Below are positions 48,849 to 64,000 of a stretch of 64,000 nucleotides of DNA, piece after piece; the first letter of the stretch is position 1; every line of letters starts with the position of its first letter. The position numbers and the translations under genes are program-made. This DNA is from Ancylothrix sp. D3o (GTDB lineage: Bacteria; Cyanobacteriota; Cyanobacteriia; Cyanobacteriales; Oscillatoriaceae): the NCBI RefSeq assembly GCF_025370775.1, contig NZ_JAMXEX010000001.1, forward strand, positions 1 through 64,000. The letters run 5' to 3'. The notes below the pieces were generated by a model that was not told the DNA's origin, made no database searches, and worked only from the letters and a program-made list of their open reading frames with translations.

Positions 48849-50546
48849 TTACCTCGCAGGAGGAGCAACTAATTTCCTCTGCACAAACTCTCGATTTTGC
48901 AGCGCTTGCGGGTGAGATGGGTTCAGTTTCAAAGCTTCATTCAAAGCCAGCAAAGAATCTGGATATTTTTCCAAAAATCTTAAAGCTATTCCTTTACCGG
49001 CCCAAAAATCAGCATTTTTCCCATCAATTTTAAGGGCGCGATTGTAAGTCGTCACCGCTTCTTCATAACGTTTTAAAGACATCAAAGCCAAGCCTCGATT
49101 GTAACAAGCTTGAGCCAAATTTGGATTAATTCCAAGAGCGCGATCTGCGGCTTCAATCGCACTTTCATAACGCTGTAACCGCCACAAAGCAGCACTTTGA
49201 TTCACCCACAAATCAGCCAATGTTGGAGAGTCGCCCACATTCGCATCACCCCTAAGTCCGCGTTCGTAAGCCGCCACCGCATCTTCATGCTGCCCCAAAG
49301 TTGTTAAAATTCTACCTTGATTAAACCAAGCTTTAGAAGAATTTGGATTAATAGCAATTGCCTGCTGACTTGATGCCAAAGCATCTTGATACCGGCCTAA
49401 ACGCCACAAAATACCACTGCGGTTACTCCACGCATCTGCATAATTTGCCTCTAAACCAATTGCCCGGTTAGCAGACGCCAACGCCTCCTCAAAATTGCCT
49501 AGGCCGGTCTGTGCTGTTCCCCGTTGATTCCAAGCATAAGCTAACCCGAACTCTCCCCATTTTCCATCTCCTTCTTGAATGGATTTATCACAAGCTTCTA
49601 AAGCTTCTTTGTACATATTTAGCCGGTTTAAAGTCGCGCATTGATTCACCAAAGCCAGAGAATATTTAGGATTAACTTTCAGAGCCCATTGATAAGAATT
49701 TGCAGCATCAGGATGCCGGCCAATAATTCCTAAAAGAATTCCATGTTGTGTCCAAGCATCAGCATTTTTAGGCTCAATTGCCAACGCCCTGTCATAAGCT
49801 GTTATTGCTTCTTCATACCGCATCAATTTTGTTAGAATTTGCGCTCGATTAAGCCAAGCAATTGCCGCTGTACCAGTTCCCCAATTTGCATTAATTTGGA
49901 GCGCCCGATCACAAGCATCCAAAGCCTCATAAGATTTGCCTTGCTGCCAGAGTACAACACACTGACCGGCAAAAGCCAAAGAGTAATCAGGTTTTAGCTG
50001 AATCGCCCAATCATACGCCACCAAAGCTTCGCTAAATTTTCCTAATTTTGCTAAGGCTTCCCCTCGATAATACCAAGCTGCCGGCGGGCTATTTTTTCCC
50101 CAATTCGCATCAGACTTTAGTGCTGTTTCGCAAGTTTGCACAGCATCATTATGTTTACCCAATTCTGATAGCGCCTGACACCGATTTGTTAATACTTGAG
50201 AGTTGGCCGGTTGCAAACGCAAAGACCGGTCATAAGACGCCACCGCTTCTTCATACTGACGCTGCACCAGCAGCACATCCCCCCGCTCAGACCACAAGGC
50301 CGGATCATTAGGATTCAAACCCAACGCTTGATCGCAAGCTTTCAACGCTTCTTCATATTTTCCTGTGGCTGCCAAACTTCCACACAAATCAGCCCAGTAT
50401 TTAAAATCTTGCACCTTTTCGGCAGCCATTAACTTAGCACATTGCCCGCCAAAAGTCAAGCCAAAAATTGAGAAATAAACAATAAAATTATGCCCAATTT
50501 TTATGGACAATGGGTGGCTTTTACTGACAACTTTGTTGTTTTCCAT
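48849..50546 (-). CDS. Secreted or membrane TPR-repeat protein
   Basis: About 565 residues from ATG 50546 (MENNKVVSKSH), which lies within the last codons of the upstream pentapeptide gene (26-bp overlap), so the two are translationally linked. A hydrophobic segment (about 20-35, HNFIVYFSIFGLTFGGQC) may be a signal peptide or anchor. The rest is about 13-14 TPR units of 34-40 residues with the W-x-x-RG and A-x-x-x-YD-R-A-x-x-x-x-P pattern, an extended scaffold for protein binding. It ends the minus-strand run that starts with injection-system baseplate genes; whether it belongs functionally to that system is unknown. Confidence 0.85.
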   Translation of the reverse strand: MENNKVVSKSHPLSIKIGHNFIVYFSIFGLTFGGQCAKLMAAEKVQDFKYWADLCGSLAATGKYEEALKACDQALGLNPNDPALWSERGDVLLVQRQYEEAVASYDRSLRLQPANSQVLTNRCQALSELGKHNDAVQTCETALKSDANWGKNSPPAAWYYRGEALAKLGKFSEALVAYDWAIQLKPDYSLAFAGQCVVLWQQGKSYEALDACDRALQINANWGTGTAAIAWLNRAQILTKLMRYEEAITAYDRALAIEPKNADAWTQHGILLGIIGRHPDAANSYQWALKVNPKYSLALVNQCATLNRLNMYKEALEACDKSIQEGDGKWGEFGLAYAWNQRGTAQTGLGNFEEALASANRAIGLEANYADAWSNRSGILWRLGRYQDALASSQQAIAINPNSSKAWFNQGRILTTLGQHEDAVAAYERGLRGDANVGDSPTLADLWVNQSAALWRLQRYESAIEAADRALGINPNLAQACYNRGLALMSLKRYEEAVTTYNRALKIDGKNADFWAGKGIALRFLEKYPDSLLALNEALKLNPSHPQALQNREFVQRKLVAPPAR

Positions 50547-51882
50547 CGGGCATAATTGCTCCACACAAGTTAACTTTGCTTAGATCAGCGCCTTCTAAAT
50601 TAGCACCCTTGAGATTGGCTCCACTTAAATTCGCCCACTCCAAGATTGCCCCTTGCAAATTCGCATCTCTCAAGTCCGCATTAAACAAATTTGCTTCCCG
50701 TAAATTTGCTTCTTTCAGATTAACACCGGCCAAACTTGCATTACTCAGCCTAGCACGTTTCAGGCTAGATCCTTGCAAATTTGCACCCTCCAAATCAGCG
50801 CCGGTTAAATCCCTCTCTTCTACTTCTTTATTCACAATTTCCCAGACTAATCGCCACTTACTTTCTAATAAAACTTTCTCTCCTAATTTGGCATTTTTCA
50901 GATTAGCATTCTTTAAATTAGCACCTTCCAAATTGACATTTTTAAGTTCAGCACCGGCCAAATCTACCCCAGCCAAAGAAGCACCCCTCAAATCAGCATA
51001 AAGCAGACTCGCATTTGTCAAATTGCTACCGCTTAAATTCGCTCCCCGCAAGTCCACAATAAACAGGTAAGCTGATTCTAGTTTCACCCTTTGCAAATTT
51101 GCTTTTTGTAAATCCAAACTTTGTAAACTTGCCCCACTTAAATTTGCCCCCACCATTGTTTCACCGGCAGCACCTTTGTTGACAAGTTGCCACACCGGCT
51201 GACCTTTGCTATCGAGTTTTGTTGCATCGTCTATAGTCGTGCCTTTTAAATTTGTCCGAAATAAATTCGCTGCTTCTAAATTTGCACCTTTTAAATTCGA
51301 CCCTTCCAAACTTCCGCCTTCCAAGTTCGCACTTTTTAAAATTGCTTTTTCCAAATCGGCATTTTTTATTTGGGCATTTTTCAAATTTGCTTCCGACAAA
51401 TCCGCCTCTTTTAAATTGGCATTTTCTGGGTTCGCCCCTTCTAAAATTGCTTGCTTAAGAGTGGCTTTTTCCAAATTTGCATTGGTTAAATTGGCATTTG
51501 TCAACCCCGACTCATTCAGCTTGGCATTTTTCAAATTCGCCCGAAATAAATTTGCTCCTTTTAAATTTGCTCCTTCCAAATTTGCTCCTTCCAAATTTGC
51601 CCCTTCCAATTTGGCATCCCCCAAATCGGCATCAGTTAAATCTGCCCCTTTCAAATTTGCACCGCGAAGCTCAACACCGGCCAGCCTCGCCCCCCGTAAA
51701 TTACACTCGGCACACTGTCCTGTTTTTTCTAACTGTTCTAGTTGTCGCTGACTGGCAGCGCGTGTGGGTGTTGGCAAATACAAACATCCCAAAAATAGCA
51801 GAATTCCTAGCCAAATTTTGACCGGAAAACCGGCCTTTTTAACTAAATAATTTATCCCCCAAAAAATACCGATCATCATCAT
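50521..51882 (-). CDS. Secreted pentapeptide-repeat protein
   Basis: A 453-residue protein with an N-terminal signal peptide (about 15-42, VKIWLGILLFLGCLYLPTPT followed by RA-AS) and then long arrays of A(N/D)LxG pentapeptides (GANLKGADLTDADLGDAKLE). The arrays are interrupted at two places (about residues 205-235 and 320-345) by LVNKGAAGE- and IVNKEVEER-like loops, each preceded by a K-W/G-Q-x-VW segment. Pentapeptide repeats form a right-handed beta-helix. The export signal suggests the periplasm, lumen or outside. It is encoded 61 bp downstream of the Ig-like membrane protein in the injection-system run. Confidence 0.88.
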   Translation of the reverse strand: MMMIGIFWGINYLVKKAGFPVKIWLGILLFLGCLYLPTPTRAASQRQLEQLEKTGQCAECNLRGARLAGVELRGANLKGADLTDADLGDAKLEGANLEGANLEGANLKGANLFRANLKNAKLNESGLTNANLTNANLEKATLKQAILEGANPENANLKEADLSEANLKNAQIKNADLEKAILKSANLEGGSLEGSNLKGANLEAANLFRTNLKGTTIDDATKLDSKGQPVWQLVNKGAAGETMVGANLSGASLQSLDLQKANLQRVKLESAYLFIVDLRGANLSGSNLTNASLLYADLRGASLAGVDLAGAELKNVNLEGANLKNANLKNAKLGEKVLLESKWRLVWEIVNKEVEERDLTGADLEGANLQGSSLKRARLSNASLAGVNLKEANLREANLFNADLRDANLQGAILEWANLSGANLKGANLEGADLSKVNLCGAIMPDGKQQSCQ

Positions 51883-51943: not shown

Positions 51944-54900
51944 TCAATTCACTTGTGGCGATAATTCTGCCGGTTCGAGAGGCACATCTGGCGGTGGTTT
52001 AATCGCACCATCACCGGCACCGGCCCCATCAGCACCGGCACCGGCACCGGCCCCATCTTTCCCTGAAGCCGCCCCATCACCGCCGGCCCCATCTTTCCCT
52101 GAAGCCGCCCCATCTTTCCCTGAAGTAGCCCCATCTTTTGGTGGAGCCGGAGGAGGAGGTGGCGGTGGAGCCAATCTTTCAATAATCACCGATCTTTTAA
52201 TTTCTTTGCCCTCCTCATTTGTAACTTGAAGAGTCAGCGTTTCCGTCCCCGCTTCTGGACTGATTGGGTAAGCCACCTGCCCCTGTGCCAGCACACTACC
52301 AGGAGAGGGTACCAGTTCCACTTTTATATTTTTGCTGCCTTGAACTTGCCAAGAAAAAATAATAAAACGCTCCTTATTTGTTGCCAAATCAACAATATAT
52401 TTAGGCGGAGCCGGTTTGCCATTAATATTAAATTCCGTAATTTCTGTAACAACCGCAGCGGCGGTAACTTTGATTTTTTCTGTTTTTTGAGATTCTAATT
52501 TTTCGGGTAAATTTTGCTGTTGTATCACCGTTAGCTCAAAAATATACTCTCCGGCTTGAGTCGCGTTTGTTGGCACATTTTGGCACACTAAAGTTTCCGA
52601 TTCAACCTCCTGTGCGGAAGTTTCATTTGTGGCCGGTGGAACAACACAATAAGGTTGCAGTTCCGCCGGTGTACCATTACTAAAGTCATAGCGTTTTAAA
52701 GGGCTAATGACCGAGTTATCCGGGGCGCGACCAATCAAAGTTAATTCTTTAATTTGTTTGGGATTAGCAACTTTCCAATTTAAAAGCACAGAATTACTGC
52801 TTGTGGCCGGCGGTTGAGAGGCTGGATCACTAGGAGTAGCGGTGGAAGCTACTGCTTCTTGGTAAGCCGGTTGTGTAGAGGCAAATTCGAGAATTTTTGC
52901 CCCAGGAAGCGGTAAAATTTTTAGGGTATTAGTTTTAACTATTTCGGAAGGAACCCCACTGCTGGTTTTGGGAATAACCGCTAATTCAAACACATAATCA
53001 CCGGGGCTAGTTGCGCCCGTTGGAATTTTCTGGCAAAGCAAAACCGGCAACTCTCCTGTGACTTGGTTTGTAAGGCAATAGCCTTTAAGTTCTGGGGGGA
53101 TACCTTGACTGAAATCGTAGCGTTTTAAAGGGCTATTAACTGAGTTATCAGGAGCGCGACCAATCAAAGTTAATTCTTTAAGTTCCGAAACATTAATTAC
53201 TTTCCAATTAAGGAGAATGCTGCCGGTTTGTGGCGTTATATTAGGAGTTTGAGTATTAGGAAGAGAAGCAGTTAAGGATAAACCGGCCCCTAAACTTAAA
53301 GGCATAGATGTCAATGAAACTCCCCCTCCTTCTTTATACACTGGTTGGTCGGATGAAAATTCGACAATTTTGGGTAGCGGGGTAGCAGAAATTGTAATCG
53401 TATTTGTTTTCAGACTGAGTACCTGCGGCGAGTTATCTCTGGCAAAAAAAGGCCGTTGTGTTTGTTTAGGAGTAACCGTAAGCTCAAAAATATAATTGCC
53501 GGCAGCGCGAGCATCTGTCCAGACATTTTGACACAGCAAAACAGTCGTGCCGGTTTCTTTTTTTGTCTGGCAAAAATTTTGCAGAGACGGGGGAAAATTG
53601 GCGCTCAAATCATAATTAAAGGGGCCACTGATAACTTTTCCTTCGGGAGATAAACCGATAATTTTTAAAGATTGAATTTTATCTGGGTTAGCGATTTTCC
53701 AATTCAAGCGAATTCTGTCACCTACAAATTCTTGGTAAAAGCTGCGTTCAGGGGAAAAATCAAGTAGTTTTGGAGTTCTGGGGGGGCGAGTTAACAACCA
53801 AAAAATCAGAAAAATCACTGAGGCGATGCTGCCGGTGATGGCAAGAACAAGCAGCAAAAATTGCCACCAGGGGCGAGGTTCCCACATCAAAGATCCTTGA
53901 AACCGGTTTAGGGTTAGGGGTAATTGCTGTTTGTCTTCTAGCTCGATAATAAAGTTAAATAACTGCCCAGAAAATGGCCGCCATCTTTTAGTGGGTTTTA
54001 CTTGTAAACCTACTAGGGATTCTTGGGATAAACCTAGGTGGATATAATCAGGGGCAAAGGTATAAGAGCAGGTTTGTTCTTCCTCAGTGTTCTTGGCTTG
54101 CAGTTGGATAGAGCGGGGAGTATTTCCTAAGTTTTGAAAACGCAATTCATAGAGGCCGGGTTTATTTTTTACTTTGCCTTGGAGGGTGACTAATTCCACA
54201 TTTAGTAAATAGGTAGGCAAAATTTCTAGGTGAACAAGATCAAGCAGAATTAAATCGGGATGGTTGGTGGAGTGGAGGCGGACTGTGGGGGCATAAATTC
54301 CTGCTGGTGTATTTAGAGGCGGGTTAAACATCAGCAATATTTGGTTTTGTTCGCCTGGGTTGAGTTCCAGCGAGCCGGTTGAGGCAAAAAGTCCTTCTAG
54401 GGGCAAATTTTCTGGATAAATAACAGTTAACCAGCTATCAGGAACGTCCGAGCAGCTTAAATAAAATCGGTCAACGCGATCAGAACGGTTATGAACAAAT
54501 GCTTGTAATTGAAGTTGAGAACCTGGTTGCAAGCGAGCCGGTGCGACAGAATTTGTGGCCGGTTGTAGGCTAAAAGTTGGGTCTGTTGCGGTGCGCGTTT
54601 CTTCAATAAAAGGCATAACCACAACCCGACCCCTGCGATCAATAGGAGTATCTTCCGGGTAGTGTTTTGGGGCATCAATTTTGAGTAAATAATCGTAGGT
54701 GTCGCTTGGTGTTTCTAGGGGGACTTCAAATTGCAAAACTACTTCTGTACTTTGGTAGCGGTTTAACCCAACCCGTTCACCGGGCGACAAACACCACTGC
54801 GCCACCTCACAGCTTTCGTCAATAAAAATATCAATTAGGGCACTGCGGTCGCCTTGATTAGTAATAGTAATGCTAATTTCAAAAACGCTGCCGGCCATCA

Positions 54901-55021
54901 CATTTATGTCGCCAGAAGGGTTAAGAATTATCGCTAAAGGGTTCGCCAGAGTCCCCAAACGGTCGTTTTCTTGATAGCCATTGTGAGGAGATGCACTTAA
55001 ACTAAAATTTTGAACTGCCAT
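51944..55021 (-). CDS. Large single-pass membrane protein with Ig-like domains and proline/GKDGA tail
   Basis: A 1025-residue protein without signal peptide. Residues 30-375 form Ig/NEW3-like beta domains (ISITITNQGDRSALIDIFID; HNRSDRVDRFYLSCSDVPDS; FQNLGNTPRSIQLQAKN). One membrane helix follows (386-410, WQFLLLVLAITGSIASVIFL). Beyond it are three related about 130-residue beta repeats, each with a KELTLIGRAPDNSV- or KIIGLSPEGKVIS-like segment, an LLCQ/LVCQN cysteine and an AGDYVFEL-like end, then a fourth, divergent one. The C-terminus is low complexity: seven consecutive prolines, then GKDGA/GAG repeats. The N-terminal domain type recurs in the proteins at 55304 and 60973. Position in a contractile-injection locus suggests a membrane anchor or gate; that is inference. 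Confidence 0.82.
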   Translation of the reverse strand: MAVQNFSLSASPHNGYQENDRLGTLANPLAIILNPSGDINVMAGSVFEISITITNQGDRSALIDIFIDESCEVAQWCLSPGERVGLNRYQSTEVVLQFEVPLETPSDTYDYLLKIDAPKHYPEDTPIDRRGRVVVMPFIEETRTATDPTFSLQPATNSVAPARLQPGSQLQLQAFVHNRSDRVDRFYLSCSDVPDSWLTVIYPENLPLEGLFASTGSLELNPGEQNQILLMFNPPLNTPAGIYAPTVRLHSTNHPDLILLDLVHLEILPTYLLNVELVTLQGKVKNKPGLYELRFQNLGNTPRSIQLQAKNTEEEQTCSYTFAPDYIHLGLSQESLVGLQVKPTKRWRPFSGQLFNFIIELEDKQQLPLTLNRFQGSLMWEPRPWWQFLLLVLAITGSIASVIFLIFWLLTRPPRTPKLLDFSPERSFYQEFVGDRIRLNWKIANPDKIQSLKIIGLSPEGKVISGPFNYDLSANFPPSLQNFCQTKKETGTTVLLCQNVWTDARAAGNYIFELTVTPKQTQRPFFARDNSPQVLSLKTNTITISATPLPKIVEFSSDQPVYKEGGGVSLTSMPLSLGAGLSLTASLPNTQTPNITPQTGSILLNWKVINVSELKELTLIGRAPDNSVNSPLKRYDFSQGIPPELKGYCLTNQVTGELPVLLCQKIPTGATSPGDYVFELAVIPKTSSGVPSEIVKTNTLKILPLPGAKILEFASTQPAYQEAVASTATPSDPASQPPATSSNSVLLNWKVANPKQIKELTLIGRAPDNSVISPLKRYDFSNGTPAELQPYCVVPPATNETSAQEVESETLVCQNVPTNATQAGEYIFELTVIQQQNLPEKLESQKTEKIKVTAAAVVTEITEFNINGKPAPPKYIVDLATNKERFIIFSWQVQGSKNIKVELVPSPGSVLAQGQVAYPISPEAGTETLTLQVTNEEGKEIKRSVIIERLAPPPPPPPAPPKDGATSGKDGAASGKDGAGGDGAASGKDGAGAGAGADGAGAGDGAIKPPPDVPLEPAELSPQVN

Positions 55022-55303
55022 AATTAATAACTCTTTTTTTTTAAGTTTGTCATTAGTCCAAAGTATCCCCTTTTTGAGGGTGGTGTGAGGCGATTTTGGT
55101 TTTCATGTCATTTGACATTTGAAGGTTGGATTTTTTAGCAAAGTAGGGGCAGATTTTTGAATAATGTTGCTTAGGGGCATACATGGCGTAAACCATACCC
55201 TCCTCTACTAGCCCCCACCCCCAACTAAAACTAGAAATTAGGGTTTTTAAGTTGTAAAAAACAGCAAAACTTGGTAGGAGGTAAAAAATCAGTTTTGGCA
55301 ACG

Positions 55304-57514
55304 TTAAGGCCGGTCACAGCCCCCTTGTGAGATACGTTCGGACTTGTTTACGCGCACTTGAGTATCATCACTTCCACTGGCTATTAAAACATATTTTTTC
55401 GTAAGTCTGATATCGGTACTGTTAATTTTTTTGCCATCAAATGATTTGATGACTTCTTTGCTCTTGGGGCTGCTGAGCCGGCCATCAGAGCCTAAGTACC
55501 ACAGTAAAACCCGCCCGTCATCGCCACCACTAGCCAGATAACAACCGTTAGGGCTAAGAGCTACCGTTCGCACAGCTTGCCCACCGTGACCCCCAGACCA
55601 CTCATCGAGAGGTTTACATTTTGTTGGATTCGTAAAACATTTTTCCATATCCCATAAAGTAATGTAACCTTGGTTATCAGAAGTCACCATCAAATTAGGC
55701 TTTGATTCGGCAATATCAATGCTAAAAATGTAGTCATTTTGACTGCCTTGCCTGGGGTAAGGAATTGACTGTAATTTATCTTCTACCCAATTCCAAACCG
55801 CCAACTGATTATACCGGCCTCCTATCACCAGATTACTATCATCTTTTCCCGCCAATTTTAACGCATAAACCGCGAAACCCAGTTGTTTTTTCTTGGCCGG
55901 TTGCTTACTTGATACTTCCCCACGCTGTTCTGGAGTTTGGCGAATAATCGAACCCGAATCAGAAGGAGGAGGGGGAGAATCTTCTAAAAGTTTCCATTGC
56001 AAAACCATACCGCTGCCATGACCACTAAACAAAAAACGTGAGCCTTGGGTGAAATCTAAACTCATCACTCGGTCATCTTTCTCGTAGAAAAAAGATTGCT
56101 TAAATATGGCATCGTCTCCTAACAAATCCCATAAATAAATCGCCCCATTTTCTAAACCCCCTGCAACTTGATCATTATTAACAGGTTTGTGACGGATGAC
56201 TCGCACCGCTTTATCGACTTTTTCTATTACGCCAATTTCTGGGTTAATCAAGGAGGAAAAGAAGCCCTCAATCTTCCACCGCCTTGTGGTTTGATCGCTT
56301 GACGAACTAATCAGCGACCGTCCGAAGCCATTAAACTGCACCGAAGTAACAGCATCTTGATGCCCATACCTGGTATTGTCAGGGTTCAGCCAAGAAGCCC
56401 ACCAAGCCAGCCACAGGATGCCGAGCGTACCGAGGGCTAAAAACCAATTAGGCAGAACCGGCTTCACCTTTAATTCCAAAGTTTGGTTGCTATTGCGCGT
56501 TTCTACCCGCTGGTCTGACCAAACCGTTTGCACTTCCAGCAGTAGTTTTTGTTCTCTGGCCACCCAAGGCCGTCTTTTCTGAGCTTTTAATAACAACTCA
56601 CCAGTTTCGTCTGCTTCTAATTCTGCCGTGTTTTGCTCCAGTTCTAAATTGCATTTGTATTCCTCATCGGCCTCGATTTTCACACTTACCGACTGACGTA
56701 AATTGCTGGAATTTTTCAAAGAAATGAGATAAGTCACAGGGTCAGACCGCCAAAATGCCCAGGATGTTTTATTCGGGAGAGACTGTTTTTTAGGCTGACA
56801 AATTGTTTCCAGAAACCCAATTGCTCGCACTTCCAACCGGCCCGAAGTTTCAGAAGAGGGGCCGTTATTTTGACTTGCTTTAATTGTAAACAAATAAATT
56901 TGACTCACACTTTTATTGCTGGCCGCCGGCTGACAGACAAAGCTCGTTTGCACTCGTTTTCCGGCAGGAATTTGTAACGATTGCTCAATCCCACCCACAA
57001 GCCAAGCGGGATCTAAACCAACAAAGCTGAGAGTTACCAAAGCATTTAACTGGCTGGGGTTGTGCGCCACCACCGGCATCTCTACTTGATCCCCCGGATA
57101 AACATTAAATTCCCCCGTCGGCAAACTCAATTTCACAGCCGGCATAGTGTTGCCTTGCTCGACAACTACACGGATCGGAACTCGGTCTTCGTCGCGTAGT
57201 TCCATCGAAAAAACCCGCACCGTAACACTAAGTAAACCGACAAATCCCGGTATCGGCGTATCGATAATGCTGACATGAAAATCCGTTACATCACCGGTCG
57301 GTTTTTTGCTGCTAACGTTAGGAGAAATTTTGTACCAATCATGGGTTATATCTTCATCAGCACCGGCAGCCAATAGTTCTACTTGAAAGCTGGCAAACCC
57401 CGGACTGTCGTTAATCACATTTACATCAAAAGATGCTGGTACACCTCCAGGTTTCAACCTCACTTCTTTTGTCGAAACAGTAGTTAGAATTAAGTTTTCA
57501 GCCATTGCTTTCAT
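55304..57514 (-). CDS. Ig-like membrane protein with C-terminal WD40 repeats
   Basis: A 736-residue protein (ATG 57505 three codons in is an alternative start). Residues 10-350 are three Ig/NEW3-like beta domains (FDVNVINDSPGFASFQVELL; PGDQVEMPVVAHNPSQLNAL; YLISLKNSSNLRQSVSVKIE). One membrane helix follows (355-375, NWFLALGTLGILWLAWWASW), then WD40 repeats from 382 to the end (GHQDAVTSVQFNGFGRSLIS; GGHGGQAVRTVALSPNGCYL with ASGGDDGRVLLW; ASGSDDTQVRV). It shares the N-terminal architecture of the protein at 51944 but has a propeller in place of the beta repeats on the other side. It is probably co-transcribed with the injection-system genes. An anchoring or docking function is inferred. Confidence 0.83.
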   Translation of the reverse strand: MKAMAENLILTTVSTKEVRLKPGGVPASFDVNVINDSPGFASFQVELLAAGADEDITHDWYKISPNVSSKKPTGDVTDFHVSIIDTPIPGFVGLLSVTVRVFSMELRDEDRVPIRVVVEQGNTMPAVKLSLPTGEFNVYPGDQVEMPVVAHNPSQLNALVTLSFVGLDPAWLVGGIEQSLQIPAGKRVQTSFVCQPAASNKSVSQIYLFTIKASQNNGPSSETSGRLEVRAIGFLETICQPKKQSLPNKTSWAFWRSDPVTYLISLKNSSNLRQSVSVKIEADEEYKCNLELEQNTAELEADETGELLLKAQKRRPWVAREQKLLLEVQTVWSDQRVETRNSNQTLELKVKPVLPNWFLALGTLGILWLAWWASWLNPDNTRYGHQDAVTSVQFNGFGRSLISSSSDQTTRRWKIEGFFSSLINPEIGVIEKVDKAVRVIRHKPVNNDQVAGGLENGAIYLWDLLGDDAIFKQSFFYEKDDRVMSLDFTQGSRFLFSGHGSGMVLQWKLLEDSPPPPSDSGSIIRQTPEQRGEVSSKQPAKKKQLGFAVYALKLAGKDDSNLVIGGRYNQLAVWNWVEDKLQSIPYPRQGSQNDYIFSIDIAESKPNLMVTSDNQGYITLWDMEKCFTNPTKCKPLDEWSGGHGGQAVRTVALSPNGCYLASGGDDGRVLLWYLGSDGRLSSPKSKEVIKSFDGKKINSTDIRLTKKYVLIASGSDDTQVRVNKSERISQGGCDRP

Positions 57515-57613: not shown

Positions 57614-59437
57614 CTACAGGTTTAAAAAATCTTTCATCCGCTGCTGCATCCACCACAAAGGATTTTGATTAAAGCTGTCCTGAGAGTCTAAAAAACCGAC
57701 CTCTTCAAGCCACTGTTTCCGCCTCTCTAACTCTGATTGGTAATCCTTTAATTTGTAAGCAATTTCTCCAGCTAGTTCGGAATTTTCCTGCAAAAACACT
57801 TGGAATTTTTCGCGGCTGACAGCAAAAAGCAGTGTATCTTCAAAAGCCCTCAACGTTTCAGCCCAAGGAATCCCCAACAATAGAGACAAATCTCCAAAAA
57901 ATTCACCCACCGATTTTTTCCTTAAACTTTCGTTATTTTTTCCTTCATAAACCTCTACCGAACCTGACAAAATCATATAAAAAGTATCTCCGGGGTCATT
58001 TTCTCTAAACAAAAACTCTCCCACCGACAACGGTTTCTTAAAGCCGATGTCAATCAGTCTTTGGATTTGCAAATCTGTAAACCCTTCAAAGCAAGTCACT
58101 TTCCGTAAAAAAGCTGCCAAATTGACTGAATTTTTGCTGGCGACTTTGCTGCGTATTTGCTTAGAATACAAGAGCAACTGCTGCAAGTGGTGATCGTGTG
58201 TCGGAGATAGTCTGTTAGCTTTTTGTAACTTCTCGCTATCTTTACGCACCTGGGCGAGTTGTTGTTTCATACTTTCTTCTCGACCAACAATTGCTACAGC
58301 CATCTGCTGAAAAATTCGCGCTAGGTTTCCCAGTTCATCATTGCGTTTAGCAACCCTATCCAGCGAGTCGGGGTTAAAGCTTTCAGCCTCAATTTCCGCC
58401 ACCGCTCCTGAGAGGCGCAAAACCGGCACTAAAAGCCATCTCGAAATCAATACACCGGCAACCGTCGCCACCCCCACTGCTACCAAGCACATTAAAATTG
58501 TGTAGTTGGTGCTGGAGTGAATTTCTCCCATAAAATCTTCCTTGGGCACCACCACAACCACCAACCAATCTAAATTAAATGATTGCCCCCAAGGAATCAC
58601 CCTAACAAACCAATGAGGGCCAGGGCAACCAGCTTTATTGCGAAACTCTAATTGCTGGGATTTTTTAATATCTTTCAAATTGCCAACCCCTGCCAAACAA
58701 TTGAGCATTTCTTGAGTGGCCTTATTGTTTTGCTGAGAAGTTTCGACCAGCATTCCCGACCGTTCTACAATAAAACTAAACCCTGATTCACTAACTGTAA
58801 CTGTCTCAAGAAACGAGCGAATTTTTGACAGATTCACCTCTATCGCACCTACGCCCCTACGCTGATTGCTGCTGTCATATAAAGGCACGCTTAAAGTCAG
58901 CATTGGCTTTTGAGAGGTAGAGTCTCGCTGAATTTTCCATAGGGATTTATCGGCACTGACTGCTACTTTATACCAGCTTTCATTTTGGGGCTTAAAATCA
59001 GGATTGTTGGCATTTTCTACCCGCTCCCACTTCCCCTTTGAGCTTCTTTGAATACTGACAAATTCCCCCGTCTCACTGGCAAATTTAATTTGGCTCACCG
59101 ACTCCCAAATTGGCATCTGCATTAATTGGTTTGGGTTAGCGACTGTACTGGCCGGTTCATCCCTATTCGGGCCAGCCATCAACATCATTAAAGAACCCGC
59201 CCTATCGTCCAAACTCCCGGTTGCGGCGCTGAGGTTAAGGTGATAAATGCCGGTCAGCGCTTCAAAATAAGTATTGAGGCTATGTTCAATATGCTTACCG
59301 GCGACCTCCTGCATTTGTGCGGCCATATTGCTGATGACTCGCTCCCCATTTTGAAACGAAGTATAACCCATCAGCCCCACTGTGGCGGCGATTTGTAAGG
59401 CTAATGCTGTTGGTATCACTTGGCGAATGGAAACCAT
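57614..59437 (-). CDS. Cache-HAMP sensor with cyclic-nucleotide-binding-like domain
   Basis: A 607-residue membrane sensor. TM1 is about 9-27; residues 35-305 are an extracytoplasmic double-Cache domain (DPLMMLMAGPNRDE region, ESWYKVAVSADKSLWKIQRD); TM2 is 311-336, then HAMP (337-390), a coiled coil and a CNMP-binding domain (443-560; CFEGFTDLQIQRLIDIG, VGEFLFRENDPGDTFYMILS). In the phosphate-binding cassette, EFFGDLSLLLGIPWAETLRA (512-531), the usual Arg that holds the cyclic phosphate is Trp525 and the Glu is Asp, so classical cAMP binding is doubtful. There is no kinase or cyclase output. In an injection-system locus it may report outside conditions to the particle; this is inference. Confidence 0.87.
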   Translation of the reverse strand: MVSIRQVIPTALALQIAATVGLMGYTSFQNGERVISNMAAQMQEVAGKHIEHSLNTYFEALTGIYHLNLSAATGSLDDRAGSLMMLMAGPNRDEPASTVANPNQLMQMPIWESVSQIKFASETGEFVSIQRSSKGKWERVENANNPDFKPQNESWYKVAVSADKSLWKIQRDSTSQKPMLTLSVPLYDSSNQRRGVGAIEVNLSKIRSFLETVTVSESGFSFIVERSGMLVETSQQNNKATQEMLNCLAGVGNLKDIKKSQQLEFRNKAGCPGPHWFVRVIPWGQSFNLDWLVVVVVPKEDFMGEIHSSTNYTILMCLVAVGVATVAGVLISRWLLVPVLRLSGAVAEIEAESFNPDSLDRVAKRNDELGNLARIFQQMAVAIVGREESMKQQLAQVRKDSEKLQKANRLSPTHDHHLQQLLLYSKQIRSKVASKNSVNLAAFLRKVTCFEGFTDLQIQRLIDIGFKKPLSVGEFLFRENDPGDTFYMILSGSVEVYEGKNNESLRKKSVGEFFGDLSLLLGIPWAETLRAFEDTLLFAVSREKFQVFLQENSELAGEIAYKLKDYQSELERRKQWLEEVGFLDSQDSFNQNPLWWMQQRMKDFLNL

Positions 59438-59554: not shown

Positions 59555-60892
59555 TCATTGTTGCTGTAGCAAAGTCATTTGATGCCTTCGCCAGGCAAAA
59601 TGCAGCAAATTCACCCCCATTTCTTGAGCGGTACGAATTGTTTCTCTTGGCAGCAAACGCTCCTCATCCAAACCCCAACCGCAGGAAAGATCGCCTAGTA
59701 CAAGCACCAATCCTCCCCAGTTGTACACTTGAACCGGCACGTCATCTACCATCGGCAATTGGCCAAACAAAAATGGCTCATTTCGTAGTGGATGATTGCG
59801 GTGCAAGGTTCCTTCACCTCCCCACCCCAATAGGTTCGCCAGATGGACAACAGGTGAGCAAATTTCGCTAATTGAGCTTTTTAACTCAATTTCTAACGCC
59901 TGGATTTCGGTTTCTATTTGCTGCCGGTAACTACTGCCATCAGTTTTTGGCACATCAAGCAGCGAGTCTTGAAGTTGGGCGTGTAAGTCTAACATTTCTC
60001 CCAATTCTGTGTTTTTTAGAGATGTTTCTATCAATACAACCCCTCCGCTTTTTAAATACTCTCGAAGCATTGTTTCTTTTTCTGTATTTTTAATTGCACT
60101 CAATTGTTCGTAGGTTAAAAAAATTAAATCACACTTTATTAATTTTTCCTGTTCCTCCGCTTCGCTTTTCCAGTTAATTTTAATTATTTCTGAGGCTGTT
60201 TGTAACCTTGGATAAAGACTGCCGGCACTTTGAAGTAAATAAGAAAGATTGGAAATAATCCGGCTATCTTCTGGTTCATTGGCGCTAGAAACCCCCACCC
60301 TTACTAATGCTGATGCCCGCCATTGAGCTTGAGGCCGGTAGCGCAAATCTAAATCATTTTTTCTAGGAAAAAATACATCTTGAGGGTTCGATAAATTTAC
60401 TTCCCCTGCGTGCAACTCAAAGCGACATACTTCTACTTCCCAATCATTAGGCGGGCTTGTTTTTTCATCTATACGAAAAGATTCTTGGACGATATCGCCA
60501 TTTTCTGATCGACGAGTTTTTTCTGGGTCAACGTAAGAAACCACCAAATAAACTGTCACCGGCTCGGATGCAGTCACCGCAGTGCTAATTCTAAATTCTA
60601 TTGGTTCGGTAACAACAATAAAATTGCCAAACATATCAATAGCAATACCGGGCTGAATTTGCACCCACCGGCCATCCCGATATTGAGGCTGAGCTATTGC
60701 TGGTGCCGGTATTAATTTCACCCCTAAATCGCAAACAATTCCGGGGTGGTTAAGAGATTGAAACTGAAGGTTTTGTCGCAGCCGGTGGTATTCGTGAGCT
60801 AGTCGCCAGCGAGACGCATCTATTAGCAGTCCATCTGTCACTTGAAGACGCTTTAAAGGTTTGATATTTGGGGGCGGCCAGTGTTTAGTCAT
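59555..60892 (-). CDS. Injection-system-associated protein with DUF4159-like C-terminus
   Basis: A 445-residue soluble protein. The N-terminal about 180 residues (LKRLQVTDGLLIDASRWRLA, then IQPGIAIDMFGNFIVVTEPI) are a beta-rich domain of the kind found in proteins of phage-tail-like loci. The middle and C-terminal part has a Rossmann-like core (CDLIFLTYEQLSAI; LREYLKSGGVVLIETS) and a late LRNEPFLFGQLPMVDDVPVQ segment, resembling DUF4159/glutamine-amidotransferase-like domains, without an obvious catalytic Cys. It lies 80 bp downstream of the tail protein gene. Possibly a baseplate-periphery or spike-associated subunit; the exact role is unknown. Confidence 0.7.
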   Translation of the reverse strand: MTKHWPPPNIKPLKRLQVTDGLLIDASRWRLAHEYHRLRQNLQFQSLNHPGIVCDLGVKLIPAPAIAQPQYRDGRWVQIQPGIAIDMFGNFIVVTEPIEFRISTAVTASEPVTVYLVVSYVDPEKTRRSENGDIVQESFRIDEKTSPPNDWEVEVCRFELHAGEVNLSNPQDVFFPRKNDLDLRYRPQAQWRASALVRVGVSSANEPEDSRIISNLSYLLQSAGSLYPRLQTASEIIKINWKSEAEEQEKLIKCDLIFLTYEQLSAIKNTEKETMLREYLKSGGVVLIETSLKNTELGEMLDLHAQLQDSLLDVPKTDGSSYRQQIETEIQALEIELKSSISEICSPVVHLANLLGWGGEGTLHRNHPLRNEPFLFGQLPMVDDVPVQVYNWGGLVLVLGDLSCGWGLDEERLLPRETIRTAQEMGVNLLHFAWRRHQMTLLQQQ

Positions 60893-60972: not shown

Positions 60973-62022
60973 CTATGAGGAATTATTCCGATTTTCTATA
61001 TACAATTCGTAGCTACAAAAAGCGGGTTTTTCTTGTTCGATAATTTGGCGGGCTAAATGCTCATTAATGAACCCGCCGGCAAGGGGGCGCAAACGGACAA
61101 TAAAATGATAGGGTTGCCCACCACCGATGAAAGAGTCTTGTCCGAGGAGGGTTTCTCCCATAACCAAACCTTTACTAGAAACCTCCTCAATACTGATATG
61201 CTTCTCAGTTTCTCTGAGGTTTTCGTCTAAAGGTAAACCGAGCACCAAACTTAGATAAAACCGCAAACCGCGTTTTGTACCCCGCCAGCGATAAATTTGC
61301 ATGGCGTTACGAATGAGAGTTCGCTGGAGTTCAACGCTCAATCCGGGGTAGGCCGGCCAGCCAACCCAGTAAGCCAAAAAAGGCAGCATTTTTTCGGGTG
61401 CAGTGAGCGGATCAAGATAAGCCCAAAGGACATCTAAAGTTTGCGGGGCGGGTTCAAAAGTGCGCTCAAAAATTGCCAGCAACCGGCCAATAAAATCTAC
61501 TTGGGAGTAAATTTCTGGCAAAAAATTCAAGTACAAACTGCGCGGACGGATGTAAAGATTAAAACTTGCTGCTTCCTTGAATTGAATGCCGTTTTCTTGG
61601 TTTACCGACACATAAATCATGCCTTGATAATCGAGTTGAAGGCTTTTTTGCGGCTGTAAAGATTCATCAAACTCAAAAAAGTTGGCAGGAATTTGAAAAT
61701 AAAGCACTGCTTCCATTTTGGCACCGGGAGCGATCTGGGAACCTTCCAGACGCAACCGGCACCAAGGTGAGGGAAAATCGCCCTCAACTAGGGCATTTAA
61801 TTCTAAATAACGGTTGCTCAAGTTTTCAATTTTGACAATAATTTCGCTCGGTTCTCCGGGGCGCACCAACAAATTGCAACCGGCCACATTTTCTTGTGCA
61901 GTAGCCAACGCAGAAAAAGCGGAACTACCGCTGCTTTTTCCCACCGCCACTGGCGTTGTTTCTGGGAGTTGCATCGGCGTTAATTGCAGGCGCAGAGGAA
62001 GAACATCACGAGCTTGTGTCAT
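60973..62022 (-). CDS. Phage tail protein I-like baseplate component with Ig-like N-terminus
   Basis: A 349-residue protein. Residues 45-165 form an Ig/NEW3-like domain (CNLLVRPGEPSEIIVKIENL; SPWCRLRLEGSQIAPGAKME) of the same type as in the proteins at 51944 and 55304. The C-terminal part is the tail-protein-I domain of contractile injection systems: YLNFLPEIYSQVDFIGRLLA, RTFEPAPQTLDVLWAYLDPL, LPFLAYWVGWPAYPGLSVEL and YRWRGTKRGLRFYLSLVLGL. In phage P2 and in Afp/PVC-like particles this protein joins the baseplate J protein to form the wedge. Directly downstream of the J-like gene (93 bp). Confidence 0.9.
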   Translation of the reverse strand: MTQARDVLPLRLQLTPMQLPETTPVAVGKSSGSSAFSALATAQENVAGCNLLVRPGEPSEIIVKIENLSNRYLELNALVEGDFPSPWCRLRLEGSQIAPGAKMEAVLYFQIPANFFEFDESLQPQKSLQLDYQGMIYVSVNQENGIQFKEAASFNLYIRPRSLYLNFLPEIYSQVDFIGRLLAIFERTFEPAPQTLDVLWAYLDPLTAPEKMLPFLAYWVGWPAYPGLSVELQRTLIRNAMQIYRWRGTKRGLRFYLSLVLGLPLDENLRETEKHISIEEVSSKGLVMGETLLGQDSFIGGGQPYHFIVRLRPLAGGFINEHLARQIIEQEKPAFCSYELYIENRNNSS

Positions 62023-62115: not shown

Positions 62116-64000
62116 TTAAATCAGATTAATAGTGTGACCGGAACGCAGTTGATCGTTGCGCCAGGATACAATCAGCCCAAGGGGGCCAGGATTGATCGTG
62201 GGTTCGCGGGGCATGATTCGCTCCCATGTTGAACCCTGCCGGCGTAATTCAAATAGCTGGACGGCTCCTAAATAGCGAATGCCAGCAATTTTTTGTAAGA
62301 GGGTGATGATATCGGAAGGGTAGGCGGGACGACCAAAAGGCCAGCCGGTACCTTCTGGGCCGCCGCAGAGCGGGTTAAGGAAGCGGTAGAGGGCCACCTG
62401 AGCTTTTAAAAGAATTTCTTGGCGGGCGCTGGGGTTGTTATATTCGGGTTCTAGGGAAATTTCGGTTTGCACTGCTACGCCAACATATTCGGGTTGCCGG
62501 CAAGTTACCTGCACGCCGAGCAAGCGCCGTTCGTCGAGATATTCCTGTACTTGCTCTGTGAGTTGGGGTGAAAGGTTGAAAAAATCTGGATCAATGCCGG
62601 TACCGGCGTCGATGCCTGTGATGTTGGTTTGGGGAACTAGGAGTAATTCGACCCTACCGGCCTGCTCTTTCCGAGTGGGCGATAGGCAGAGAACGCGGGC
62701 AACGGCTCCTCTGCCGCCTTCTTTGGCGAGAGTTTCAAAGTCTTCTGAGGTGACGGCTCGATCCCTTGTCCGTAGCAGTCTCGGCACTCGGATAACGGCT
62801 TCTTCTAAGGATTCGGCATCGGCTCCGTTGCGGGCGCTGGTGTGGTTGATGACTCTGGCGACGTAAGGAACGGCAGATTTTAACATTGTAATGGTGCCGG
62901 CCTGGACGTTTCCTTTTTGGCCTCCGCCGGTGCGGTAAGCAACCATTTGAATTGTGGAGCCTCTGGGGGGGACGGCTCCGTAGTGGCGCGCATCTGCTTC
63001 TCCTGCGGCCCGCTGGTTGCTGGTGGCTGTCTGACCGGCTGTCCGCAAGCGGGTTTGCTGTTGCAGTTGACCGGGTTCGCGGATTAAGGGCCCAAATTGA
63101 ATGGTGCCGGTTAGGTCATCAATGGTGTAGTGCAGGTCTTGGGGGCCAGAACTGGCAAAGTCGCTGACTTCTTGCCACAGTTGGGGTAGTCCTCCGGGGG
63201 GTGTTACGAGCAGGCGTTCTGTGTCGCGGCGGGGTAAGAGGGGAGCGTTTTGCAGCACGAAAGTTTGCCCTGGTGTGCCGTCGCTTTCTCCTAACAGTTC
63301 GTTGCGAATTAATGTGCTTTGGGTGGCTTGTACTGTGCCGCCAATGGAGCGAACGTTTAAACCGACAATGCGGGGTGAACTGCTGTAGCTTGGTTGGTTG
63401 GGTTTGGGAGGGGTACAGGTGCAGCGCAGCCACCGGCCAACATAGGTGACAAATTGAACGACGGGCCACTGCTGGGGCAAGTGCAGGACTACATCGGCTG
63501 CTTGGAGGGGGTTGTTGTTTTGACGCTGATTATTGAAGCTAAAGCCTTTGCTGTTGTCGTCGCTTTCGCGTAGTAGTACCGGCTGCCAGGTTTGTCCGTC
63601 CCACGCTTCCCAGTGGCGGGGGGGTTGTTCGGGATTGATGCCGGTGGGGGTGGCGGCGAGGCCGGTTAAGGTTAGGGCGATGACGTTGCCTTCGCTGGGT
63701 TGGTCTGGCTCAAAGGCTAGGTAAAAGCTATTTCCTGGTTGGGGTTGTTCGTTAAAAATGGCTAGGGGTAAGCCTTGCCAGTGTCCATCGGGTTCGCGTC
63801 TCCAGGTGCCGGCCCATCGATCCCGCAGCATTTGTGGTTGGTTTTCTGCTGCGTTTTCGGCGGTGAGAAAGTGTCGGATTCTTGGGCTGGCGATTGTTAA
63901 GGGCCGGTCTGTGCTGAAAATTATTGCTTCTTCGTTTTCTGTTCTGGGAGTGGCTATTTCTGTGCCGGCTGGTATGGTGTAGGTTTCTGGTAGGGCGGCG
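62116..64000 (-). CDS. Baseplate J-like assembly protein (5' end outside window)
   Basis: The frame is open from the stop at 62116 to the window edge, at least 627 codons, with no start; an internal ATG at 63831 is not the real one because the upstream codons continue the domain (LPETYTIPAGTEIATPRTEN, then EEAIIFSTDRPLTIASPRIR). This is the putative baseplate assembly protein of contractile injection systems: VPPRGSTIQMVAYRTGGGQK, VINHTSARNGADAESLEEAV, RVPRLLRTRDRAVTSEDFET, EYLDERRLLGVQVTCRQPEY, and RFLNPLCGGPEGTGWPFGRP near the end. It forms the wedge of the baseplate with the I-like protein encoded next. Sheath, tube, hub and AAA genes should lie beyond base 64000. Confidence 0.92.
   Translation of the reverse strand, partial: AALPETYTIPAGTEIATPRTENEEAIIFSTDRPLTIASPRIRHFLTAENAAENQPQMLRDRWAGTWRREPDGHWQGLPLAIFNEQPQPGNSFYLAFEPDQPSEGNVIALTLTGLAATPTGINPEQPPRHWEAWDGQTWQPVLLRESDDNSKGFSFNNQRQNNNPLQAADVVLHLPQQWPVVQFVTYVGRWLRCTCTPPKPNQPSYSSSPRIVGLNVRSIGGTVQATQSTLIRNELLGESDGTPGQTFVLQNAPLLPRRDTERLLVTPPGGLPQLWQEVSDFASSGPQDLHYTIDDLTGTIQFGPLIREPGQLQQQTRLRTAGQTATSNQRAAGEADARHYGAVPPRGSTIQMVAYRTGGGQKGNVQAGTITMLKSAVPYVARVINHTSARNGADAESLEEAVIRVPRLLRTRDRAVTSEDFETLAKEGGRGAVARVLCLSPTRKEQAGRVELLLVPQTNITGIDAGTGIDPDFFNLSPQLTEQVQEYLDERRLLGVQVTCRQPEYVGVAVQTEISLEPEYNNPSARQEILLKAQVALYRFLNPLCGGPEGTGWPFGRPAYPSDIITLLQKIAGIRYLGAVQLFELRRQGSTWERIMPREPTINPGPLGLIVSWRNDQLRSGHTINLI

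What the first reader, a model, noticed from the sequence alone, without database searches (positions are those of the whole stretch)
51944..57514. Two candidate membrane anchors built as Ig domains - one helix - different outer module
The proteins at 51944 and 55304 share an N-terminal run of Ig/NEW3-like domains without signal peptide and one membrane helix (386-410 and 355-375). After the helix they carry beta repeats or WD40 repeats. The parallel design, beside baseplate genes, suggests a pair that ties a cytoplasmic particle to a membrane and presents a binding surface on the other side.
Basis: inference. Interest (0 to 1): 0.75.

Follow-up and report, generated by a model that had tools for sequence, protein, structure and literature searches.

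The report
Paired membrane anchors of injection machine
Two neighbouring cyanobacterial genes encode related membrane proteins that go together with one lineage of phage-tail-like injection machine and look built to hold the machine from inside the cell while showing a different domain outside; relatives in Streptomyces have been called the machine's effectors.

Summary
A (51944-55021) and B (55304-57514) each have three Ig/NEW3-like domains, no signal peptide, one helix (385-408; 356-374 in AlphaFold2 models), then Ig-type repeats or a WD40 propeller. Their N-terminal halves are homologous. In 292 cyanobacterial genomes A and B were found together in 19 and never singly: the 19 with a high-scoring TIGR02243 baseplate gene; 11 genomes with lower-scoring forms have neither. 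Cysteines after the helix are even in number (27/27 A, 21/21 B representatives; before it 13/27, 9/21), so the outer modules probably face an oxidising space and the Ig domains the cytoplasm. Relatives in Deinococcus CIS loci carry kinase and FHA domains before the Ig domains, which fits. Baseplate subunit Cis12 has a region resembling these Ig domains. The family is not unknown: Streptomyces Sco4256-4258 fit the description and are called putative toxins/effectors; cyanobacterial homologues were noted in 2023. A glycoproteome paper lists Sco4256 among membrane glycoproteins, which suits a resident membrane protein better than tube cargo. I favour docking/trigger receptors over cargo; contact with the particle is inferred, not shown. 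New variant of a known kind.

The parts
51944..55021 (-). Protein A, 1025 aa: three Ig/NEW3-like domains, one helix, Ig-type repeats with cysteine pairs, disordered tail
   Evidence: family
53933..54937 (-). A residues 29-363: Ig tandem, inferred cytoplasmic, homologous to that of B
   Evidence: strands; homology
53798..53869 (-). A residues 385-408: single membrane helix after a conserved RPWWQ-type motif
52172..53770 (-). A residues 418-950: outer beta domains with conserved cysteine pairs (C484/C497, C792/C813)
55304..57514 (-). Protein B, 736 aa: three Ig-like domains, one helix, WD40 propeller
56465..57490 (-). B residues 9-350: Ig tandem, inferred cytoplasmic
56393..56449 (-). B residues 356-374: single membrane helix
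55337..56365 (-). B residues 384-726: WD40 propeller with C626/C633 present in 41 of 41 rows
57614..59437 (-). dCache-HAMP-cNMP-binding membrane sensor between the Cis13-like gene and B; related gene in 14 of 80 named loci
59555..60892 (-). Cis13-like protein; distant from NF053767 (28.9 bits, cut-off 370); no 19-mer of KD >= 1.3 in the window protein
60973..62022 (-). Cis12-like baseplate protein (TIGR02242 domain) whose N-terminal part resembles the Ig domains of A and B by profile comparison
62116..64000 (-). Cis11 baseplate protein (TIGR02243), 725 aa, running beyond the window to contig position 64293

Best explanation
A and B are a paralogous pair of single-pass membrane proteins of one (IId-like) lineage of contractile injection system. 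Their Ig/NEW3 tandems lie in the cytoplasm and, most likely, hold the particle's baseplate through the Ig-like part of Cis12 or through Cis13; one helix crosses the cytoplasmic or thylakoid membrane; a module with disulphides on the far side (Ig repeats in A, WD40 propeller in B) is fixed to, or reads, something in the periplasm or lumen. They would dock the free particle at the membrane and pass on the trigger to fire, as proposed for CisA in Streptomyces. Shown here by computation: architecture, homology of A and B, a topology signature, co-occurrence and synteny, relatives in Deinococcus and Streptomyces CIS loci. Inferred: contact with Cis12/Cis13, docking, triggering, and which membrane.
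For: Co-occurrence: A profile in 19 of 292 genomes, B N-half in the same 19, and these are the 19 with the highest TIGR02243 scores (18 at 509 bits or more in one stretch, G066 about 453 in two); the other 11 over the cut-off reach 286 at most and have neither. Fisher p 1.7e-22 against all 30 over the cut-off, relatedness ignored. In 10 of the 18 A and that Cis11 lie on different contigs or over 1 Mb apart, in G167 and G241 on one contig, so neighbourhood alone does not explain it. Synteny: of 80 named loci (of 122), B directly before A in 62, Cis12/13 upstream in 37, typical order gp25-Cis11-Cis12-Cis13-(cache)-B-A; CisA lies after the baseplate genes too. Topology: post-helix cysteines even in 77/77 A and 60/62 B, pre-helix 34/77 and 31/62; Cis11, Cis12, Cis13 11/34, 21/34, 19/37; among representatives below 60% identity 27/27 and 21/21 against 13/27 and 9/21; C658/C733 of B both or neither in 41 of 41. 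Deinococcus relatives: kinase and FHA before the Ig domains. Cis12 N-part matches A (89.5%, E 2e-6) and B (73.7%, 2.9e-5); control A against Cis13 0.1%. SCO4256 is listed as a membrane glycoprotein (PMC6593405). A separate eCIS_core protein lies in the cluster.
Against: Casu 2023: without sco4256-4258 the tube lumen was mostly empty (~85%, n 73) where wild type was ~97% filled (n 91), and the proteins were toxic in E. coli, which fits cargo; Sco4256 was found in purified particles, though a bound anchor would be too. Charge bias at the helix is equal for A (17 rows N>C, 17 N<C) and only weakly N-in for B (22 against 9); in a first set of 20, A leaned the other way (1 against 12). The Cis12 match may be a generic fold: Pfam finds no Ig family in any of 24 Cis12, and the Cis12 of G066, which has A and B, matches the Cis12 profile only from position 95. 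39 of 80 named loci have no CIS core gene within the fetched flanks. G060 has two Cis11 over 340 bits but one A and one B. No complex could be modelled.
Confidence: 0.6

Rival explanations
1. A and B are effectors: membrane-inserting cargo loaded into the tube and delivered on firing, as published for Streptomyces Sco4256-4258.
For: Sco4256-4258 toxic in E. coli, triple mutant has mostly empty tube lumens and no stress-induced death (PMC10066040); Sco4256 in all three particle purifications and about one third of homologues with toxin/lectin-like ends (PMC10020575); the C-terminal modules vary between phyla.
Against: Neither A nor B has the eCIS_core domain, which a neighbour has at 4e-31. The pair is present in 19 of 19 high-scoring systems. 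Deinococcus relatives are about 1600 aa with kinase and FHA domains, implausible as tube cargo. SCO4256 is listed as a membrane glycoprotein. CisA expression too is toxic in E. coli, so toxicity may be a membrane-protein effect.
Confidence: 0.2
2. A and B are envelope sensors or scaffolds that regulate CIS expression or firing through other proteins without touching the particle.
For: Kinase/FHA fusion in Deinococcus; dCache-HAMP-cNMP gene beside B; a roughly 100-residue N-terminal extension in 21 of 46 A rows by crude start choice, of which 8 were tested: 7 match a winged-helix family at E < 0.01 (best clear one TrmB 4.9e-5), the eighth at 0.034, and only one passes a curated cut-off; B-A often away from CIS genes.
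Against: Ig-like part in baseplate subunit Cis12; placement after the baseplate genes in 37 of 80 loci; Sco4256 co-purifies with particles.
Confidence: 0.12
3. A and B are assembly or cargo-loading factors at the membrane.
For: The empty-lumen phenotype of the Streptomyces triple mutant would also follow from a loading defect.
Against: I know of no loading factor with this build (recalled); particles in the mutant otherwise look like wild type.
Confidence: 0.05

Closest known systems
Sco4256-4258 of Streptomyces coelicolor (PMC10020575, PMC10066040) and the S. clavuligerus CIS-locus 'hydrolase' WP_003963535.1
   Same: Ig-like N-terminal part, one helix, variable C-terminal module, in IId CIS loci; the S. 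clavuligerus protein matches the B profile at 6.8e-11 and A at 1.4e-10 over the later Ig domains and helix; the 2023 paper itself notes cyanobacterial homologues
   Different: Called toxins/effectors there; about two Ig domains instead of three in the S. clavuligerus protein; outer modules are ricin-like (Sco4257/4258), PG_binding_1 or ChW; no WD40 or Ig-repeat partner pair in the parts read. Sco4256 itself was not compared here
CisA (Sco4242), membrane protein needed for firing (PMC12237407, passages)
   Same: Single-pass with an outer C-terminal domain, encoded after the baseplate genes, proposed docking and checkpoint role
   Different: Different domains (zinc ribbons in S. clavuligerus, largely unstructured N-part, solute-binding-like end); the S. 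clavuligerus protein in that place gives no match to A or B profiles at E <= 1
Thylakoid-anchored CIS of Anabaena (PMC8894136, abstract, passages, section 10)
   Same: Cyanobacterial CIS tied to a membrane by a helix
   Different: There the anchors are the helix of Cis13 and an extension of Cis12; here Cis12 is 349 aa, the window's Cis13-like protein shows no helix, and A/B are separate proteins
FHA kinases of Deinococcus CIS loci (D. grandis, D. aquaticus, D. psychrotolerans)
   Same: Ig-helix core (A profile 1.2e-20, B 9.5e-20 for D. grandis) beside baseplate/tail genes, further repeats after the helix
   Different: Kinase and FHA domains in front; Cis12 of D. aquaticus and D. psychrotolerans carries FHA, with no Pfam Ig match

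Membership tests
Sco4256-type CIS-associated membrane proteins | Encoded by IId-lineage CIS genomes | tested here: met
   With a high-scoring TIGR02243 in 19 of 19; best-listed non-cyanobacterial Cis11 matches on plasmids are Deinococcus and Streptomyces/Streptantibioticus, 36-38%, which PMC12998442 places in IId. No tree was built
Sco4256-type CIS-associated membrane proteins | Ig/pilus-chaperone-like N-part, one helix, variable C-part | tested here: met
Sco4256-type CIS-associated membrane proteins | Sequence homology over N-part and helix | tested here: met
   With four distinct Streptomyces proteins: A profile matches 4 of 4, B 3 of 4, E 7.7e-15 to 1.5e-7; Sco4256 itself was not in any collection used
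Sco4256-type CIS-associated membrane proteins | Present in particles; toxic when expressed | not testable with these tools
   needs experiment
eCIS_core (DUF4157) effectors | eCIS_core domain PF13699 | tested here: not met
   No match in A or B at E 0.1; neighbour L003:16790-18859 matches at 4e-31
Thylakoid CIS anchors (Cis13 helix, Cis12 extension) | Helix in Cis13 | tested here: not met
   Window protein: no 19-mer with KD >= 1.3. 20 of 36 relatives do reach 1.6; I read these as buried strands, not checked
Thylakoid CIS anchors (Cis13 helix, Cis12 extension) | Cis12 extension / CIS12_fam cut-off | tested here: not met
   58.2 bits against 860; 349 aa
CisA | Sequence similarity and zinc-ribbon/solute-binding-like domains | tested here: not met
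   compared with the S. clavuligerus protein in the CisA place, not with CisA of S. coelicolor
CisA | Membrane protein required for firing | not testable with these tools
   needs experiment
WD40 repeat proteins (B) | PF00400 over cut-off | tested here: met
   74.5 bits, cut-off 27; propeller fold
NEW3 domain PF10633 (A) | PF10633 over cut-off in the window protein | tested here: inconclusive
   Not listed for the window protein; 19 of 46 relatives at E <= 0.01; fold match

The most novel reading that the evidence does not exclude
The proteins now called effectors of IId injection systems are not cargo but a membrane-receptor family: an inner Ig tandem that grips the particle, a helix, and an outer module exchanged between phyla (wall-binding and lectin modules in Streptomyces, WD40 and disulphide Ig repeats in cyanobacteria, Ig-like repeats in Deinococcus). 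The baseplate subunit Cis12 carries a matching module (Ig-like in cyanobacteria, FHA where the receptor has a kinase and FHA), so docking follows a module code and in Deinococcus may be switched by phosphorylation.
Probability: 0.4. Interest if true: 0.8.

Novelty: new variant of a known kind. Interest (0 to 1): 0.64.

Why it matters
How cytoplasmic contractile particles find and fire at their own membrane is an open question. CisA is needed for firing in S. coelicolor, but PMC12998442 reports no close CisA homologue in Roseiflexus. A and B belong to a candidate family found here in cyanobacteria, Deinococcus and Streptomyces, and they set a clear test between two readings, receptor or cargo, of proteins whose Streptomyces members are required for regulated cell death. 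A WD40 propeller with disulphides outside the cytoplasm would also be unusual (recalled; one paper search, listed nothing on it by title or abstract).

Tried and rejected
BLASTP of A against B and of each against Cis12 showed nothing useful; profile comparison was needed. The positive-inside rule was tried on 20 A / 21 B and 46 / 41 rows and is inconclusive; in the first set A leaned the other way (12 rows N<C, 1 N>C, 20-residue flanks) and B was mixed (9 N>C, 6 N<C). I first thought the 11 genomes with other TIGR02243 hits and no A/B were thylakoid CIS; one of them (G191) fell far below the CIS12/CIS13 family cut-offs and CIS12_fam passed its cut-off in 0 of 292 genomes, so I call them only 'other lineages'. 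Two of the 11 (G019, G199) have frames that match both ends of TIGR02243 (281 and 286 bits summed), so my line between the groups is by score, drawn after seeing the data. The single-sequence search missed A in G066; profiles found it. A was sought in phages (none) and B in plasmids (15 records, three covering at least 80%). The kinase reading of the third bitopic protein's front part gave no PDB match and stays a guess by eye. Fold search of A mainly lists tandem Ig proteins with low TM-scores. Some A relatives of Cis13 show hydrophobic 19-mers (20 of 36).

Rows used or dropped: one search kept 80 of 122 loci. Parity used 77 of 80 A (three of 700 aa or less left out) and 62 B (left out: the two pieces of L101 and two long minus-strand WD40 proteins in L082 and L117). 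Alignments: A1 17 of 20 and A2 18 of 21 sample homologues, A3 7, A4 46 of 80 A, A5 41 of 62 B, A6 23 of 34 Cis12 plus the window, A7 25 of 36 Cis13 plus the window. The N-terminal extension was tested in 8 of 21. The parity of the PstS-ended protein used 15 of 18 genomes: even after the helix in 13, before it in 6.

Papers: abstract, passages and section 10 of PMC8894136; passages of PMC12237407, PMC12998442, PMC12923769, PMC8213781, PMC11126660, PMC12402492, PMC5826349, PMC2000904; section 11 and passages of PMC10020575 and PMC10066040; part 1 of section 7 and passages of PMC6593405. That I know of no paper describing the WD40 or Ig-repeat pair rests on searches, in a library without most subscription papers and without preprints; Chen 2019 (Cell Rep) was not read.


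Full report
What is there. The window is the first 64 kb of a 1.0 Mb contig of an unnamed 6.57 Mb cyanobacterial genome. A and B lie near the end of a minus-strand gene series that runs into the window from beyond its right end: AAA+ ATPase, eCIS_core protein, two genes of unknown function, a pentapeptide protein, a protein with one helix and a PstS-like end, gp19-type tube protein, a gene of unknown function, CIS_tube protein, VgrG, gp25, Cis11 (TIGR02243), Cis12 (TIGR02242 domain), a Cis13-like protein, a dCache-HAMP-cNMP protein, then B and A, a pentapeptide protein and a TPR protein. A sheath gene and further tail-like genes follow on the other strand at about 85-100 kb of the contig (named by eye).

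Architecture. The relative placing of domains is not reliable (pTM 0.56 and 0.39). In B of the window the helix is only weakly hydrophobic, but the family keeps it. A and B share homologous N-terminal halves, helix included (98.5%, E 1.6e-15), so I infer a duplication followed by different outer modules.

Distribution. In an even draw of 292 genomes of the phylum, A (profile) and B (N-half) are found in the same 19 genomes, of 17 of 116 genera. These are the 19 with the highest TIGR02243 scores: 18 at 509 bits or more in one stretch and G066 with about 453 in two; in G066 a divergent Cis13-B-A row was found by profile. Eleven more genomes pass the TIGR02243 cut-off with 286 bits at most and have neither A nor B. 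Of three genomes with a second Cis11 over 340 bits, two have two A and two B (G024, G125); G060 has one of each. A third single-pass protein, with the PstS-like end, has matches above 320 bits in 18 of these 19 genomes; in G066 only a weak one. Of 80 named loci (122 found), all cyanobacterial by title, B stands directly before A on the same strand in 62, and 41 have a CIS core gene within reach; L117 too has B before A, overlapping by the crude start codon.

Topology. The strongest new evidence is the count of cysteines. After the helix it is even in 77 of 77 A and 60 of 62 B proteins; before it in 34 of 77 and 31 of 62; in Cis11, Cis12 and Cis13 in 11 of 34, 21 of 34 and 19 of 37. Reduced to representatives below 60% identity it is 27 of 27 and 21 of 21 against 13 of 27 and 9 of 21. 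In B, C626/C633 is present in 41 of 41 rows, and C658/C733 is present as a pair in 25 and absent as a pair in 16, never singly. Part of the parity in A reflects whole repeats gained or lost. In the model of A, C484 and C497 lie on neighbouring strands of a hairpin and would face each other by strand numbering (my inference, no distances were measured). Paired cysteines suggest an oxidising compartment, so periplasm or thylakoid lumen. Other evidence agrees: no signal peptide, relatives with kinase and FHA domains before the Ig domains, and a weakly winged-helix-like N-terminal extension in some A relatives. The charge rule does not decide.

Relatives outside cyanobacteria. The best-listed matches of Cis11 on plasmids outside cyanobacteria are Deinococcus and Streptomyces or Streptantibioticus. 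In Deinococcus grandis the gene after the Cis12-like one encodes 1602 residues: kinase, FHA, Ig domains and helix that match the A and B profiles (1.2e-20, 9.5e-20), then repeats. D. aquaticus and D. psychrotolerans have the same build, and there Cis12 itself begins with an FHA domain. In the S. clavuligerus CIS locus a protein annotated hydrolase has Ig domains, a helix at 223 and a PG_binding_1 match. Three more Streptomyces proteins share the build; one has a ChW repeat. Of these three, one lies beside DUF4255 and ATP-binding genes, one beside a PAAR gene, and one has no CIS gene annotated in the stretch fetched. Post-helix cysteines in the four are 2, 4, 2 and 2, pre-helix 0, 0, 1 and 1; in the three Deinococcus proteins 2, 0 and 2 after and 2, 2 and 2 before, which does not discriminate there.

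Comparison with what is known. This points to Sco4256-4258 of S. coelicolor. Vladimirov et al. describe Sco4256 as a particle component with a pilus-chaperone-like N-part and a helix, about a third of homologues having a toxin- or lectin-like end; related proteins occur in 90% of 105 Streptomyces IId systems, with homologues in IId systems of filamentous cyanobacteria and Chloroflexi, and they call it a putative toxin (PMC10020575, section 11). Casu et al. show that a triple mutant has mostly empty tubes and no stress-induced death, and call the three proteins effectors (PMC10066040, section 11). Neither paper, in the parts I read, discusses a receptor reading for them. A glycoproteome study lists SCO4256 among glycoproteins enriched from the membrane proteome, with one predicted helix and no signal peptide (PMC6593405); it reports 37 new glycoproteins, of which its authors think three very likely internal, so this is support, not proof. 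I could not compare Sco4256 itself; the link rests on the S. clavuligerus protein, its place and build.

Mechanism. I read A and B as membrane receptors for the particle. The inner Ig tandem would bind the baseplate. Cis12 in this lineage has an N-terminal part that matches Ig1 of A (89.5%, E 2e-6) and Ig2 of B (73.7%, 2.9e-5), while Cis13 does not match A (B against Cis13 was not run). The Cis12 of S. clavuligerus (222 aa), D. grandis (154 aa) and G191 match only the later part of the Cis12 profile (from 168, 203 and 162). Against this: no Pfam Ig family is found in 24 Cis12, and in G066, which has A and B, the match starts at 95. The outer module would be held by, or sense, the envelope. CisA is the working precedent. 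The main result against is the empty-tube phenotype in Streptomyces, which fits cargo or loading. The two readings make different predictions.

Weighing. What is added is the paired paralogues, the new outer modules, the topology evidence, the Cis12 match and the Deinococcus fusion.

Noticed in passing
L003:10367-12880 (contig C1:70367-72880, outside the window): Third single-pass protein of the cluster: a front part that looks kinase-like by eye (no PDB match), helix, PstS-like end; matches above 320 bits in 18 of 292 genomes, those with A and B except G066. Build recalls CisA.
   Followed up: partly
57614-59437: dCache-HAMP-cNMP-binding membrane sensor between the Cis13-like gene and B; related genes in 14 of 80 named loci, two copies in a row in L060 and L061.
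   Followed up: partly
L173:6662-7588 and L174:6734-7720: Deinococcus Cis12 proteins begin with an FHA domain while the neighbouring membrane protein has kinase and FHA domains.
   Followed up: partly
L140 (Pseudanabaena sp. ABRG5-3 plasmid ABRG53d): CIS genes of this lineage with B on a 125 kb plasmid beside nitrogen-fixation genes.
   Followed up: no
L004:10620-19080: By eye: a second, shorter sheath-like protein, a tube-like protein and a 1188-residue tape-measure-like protein next to the CIS sheath gene; perhaps a second tail module.
   Followed up: no
11015-12787: The replicative helicase DnaB appears to carry an intein-like insert (by eye; no search made).
   Followed up: no
G167:C3:3680867-3683198: The A gene of this genome appears interrupted by stops, while its B is open.
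   Followed up: no
48849-51882: Pentapeptide-repeat and TPR genes directly after A, with an N-terminal hydrophobic stretch (weak in the TPR protein); similar genes recur in a number of related loci.
   Followed up: no
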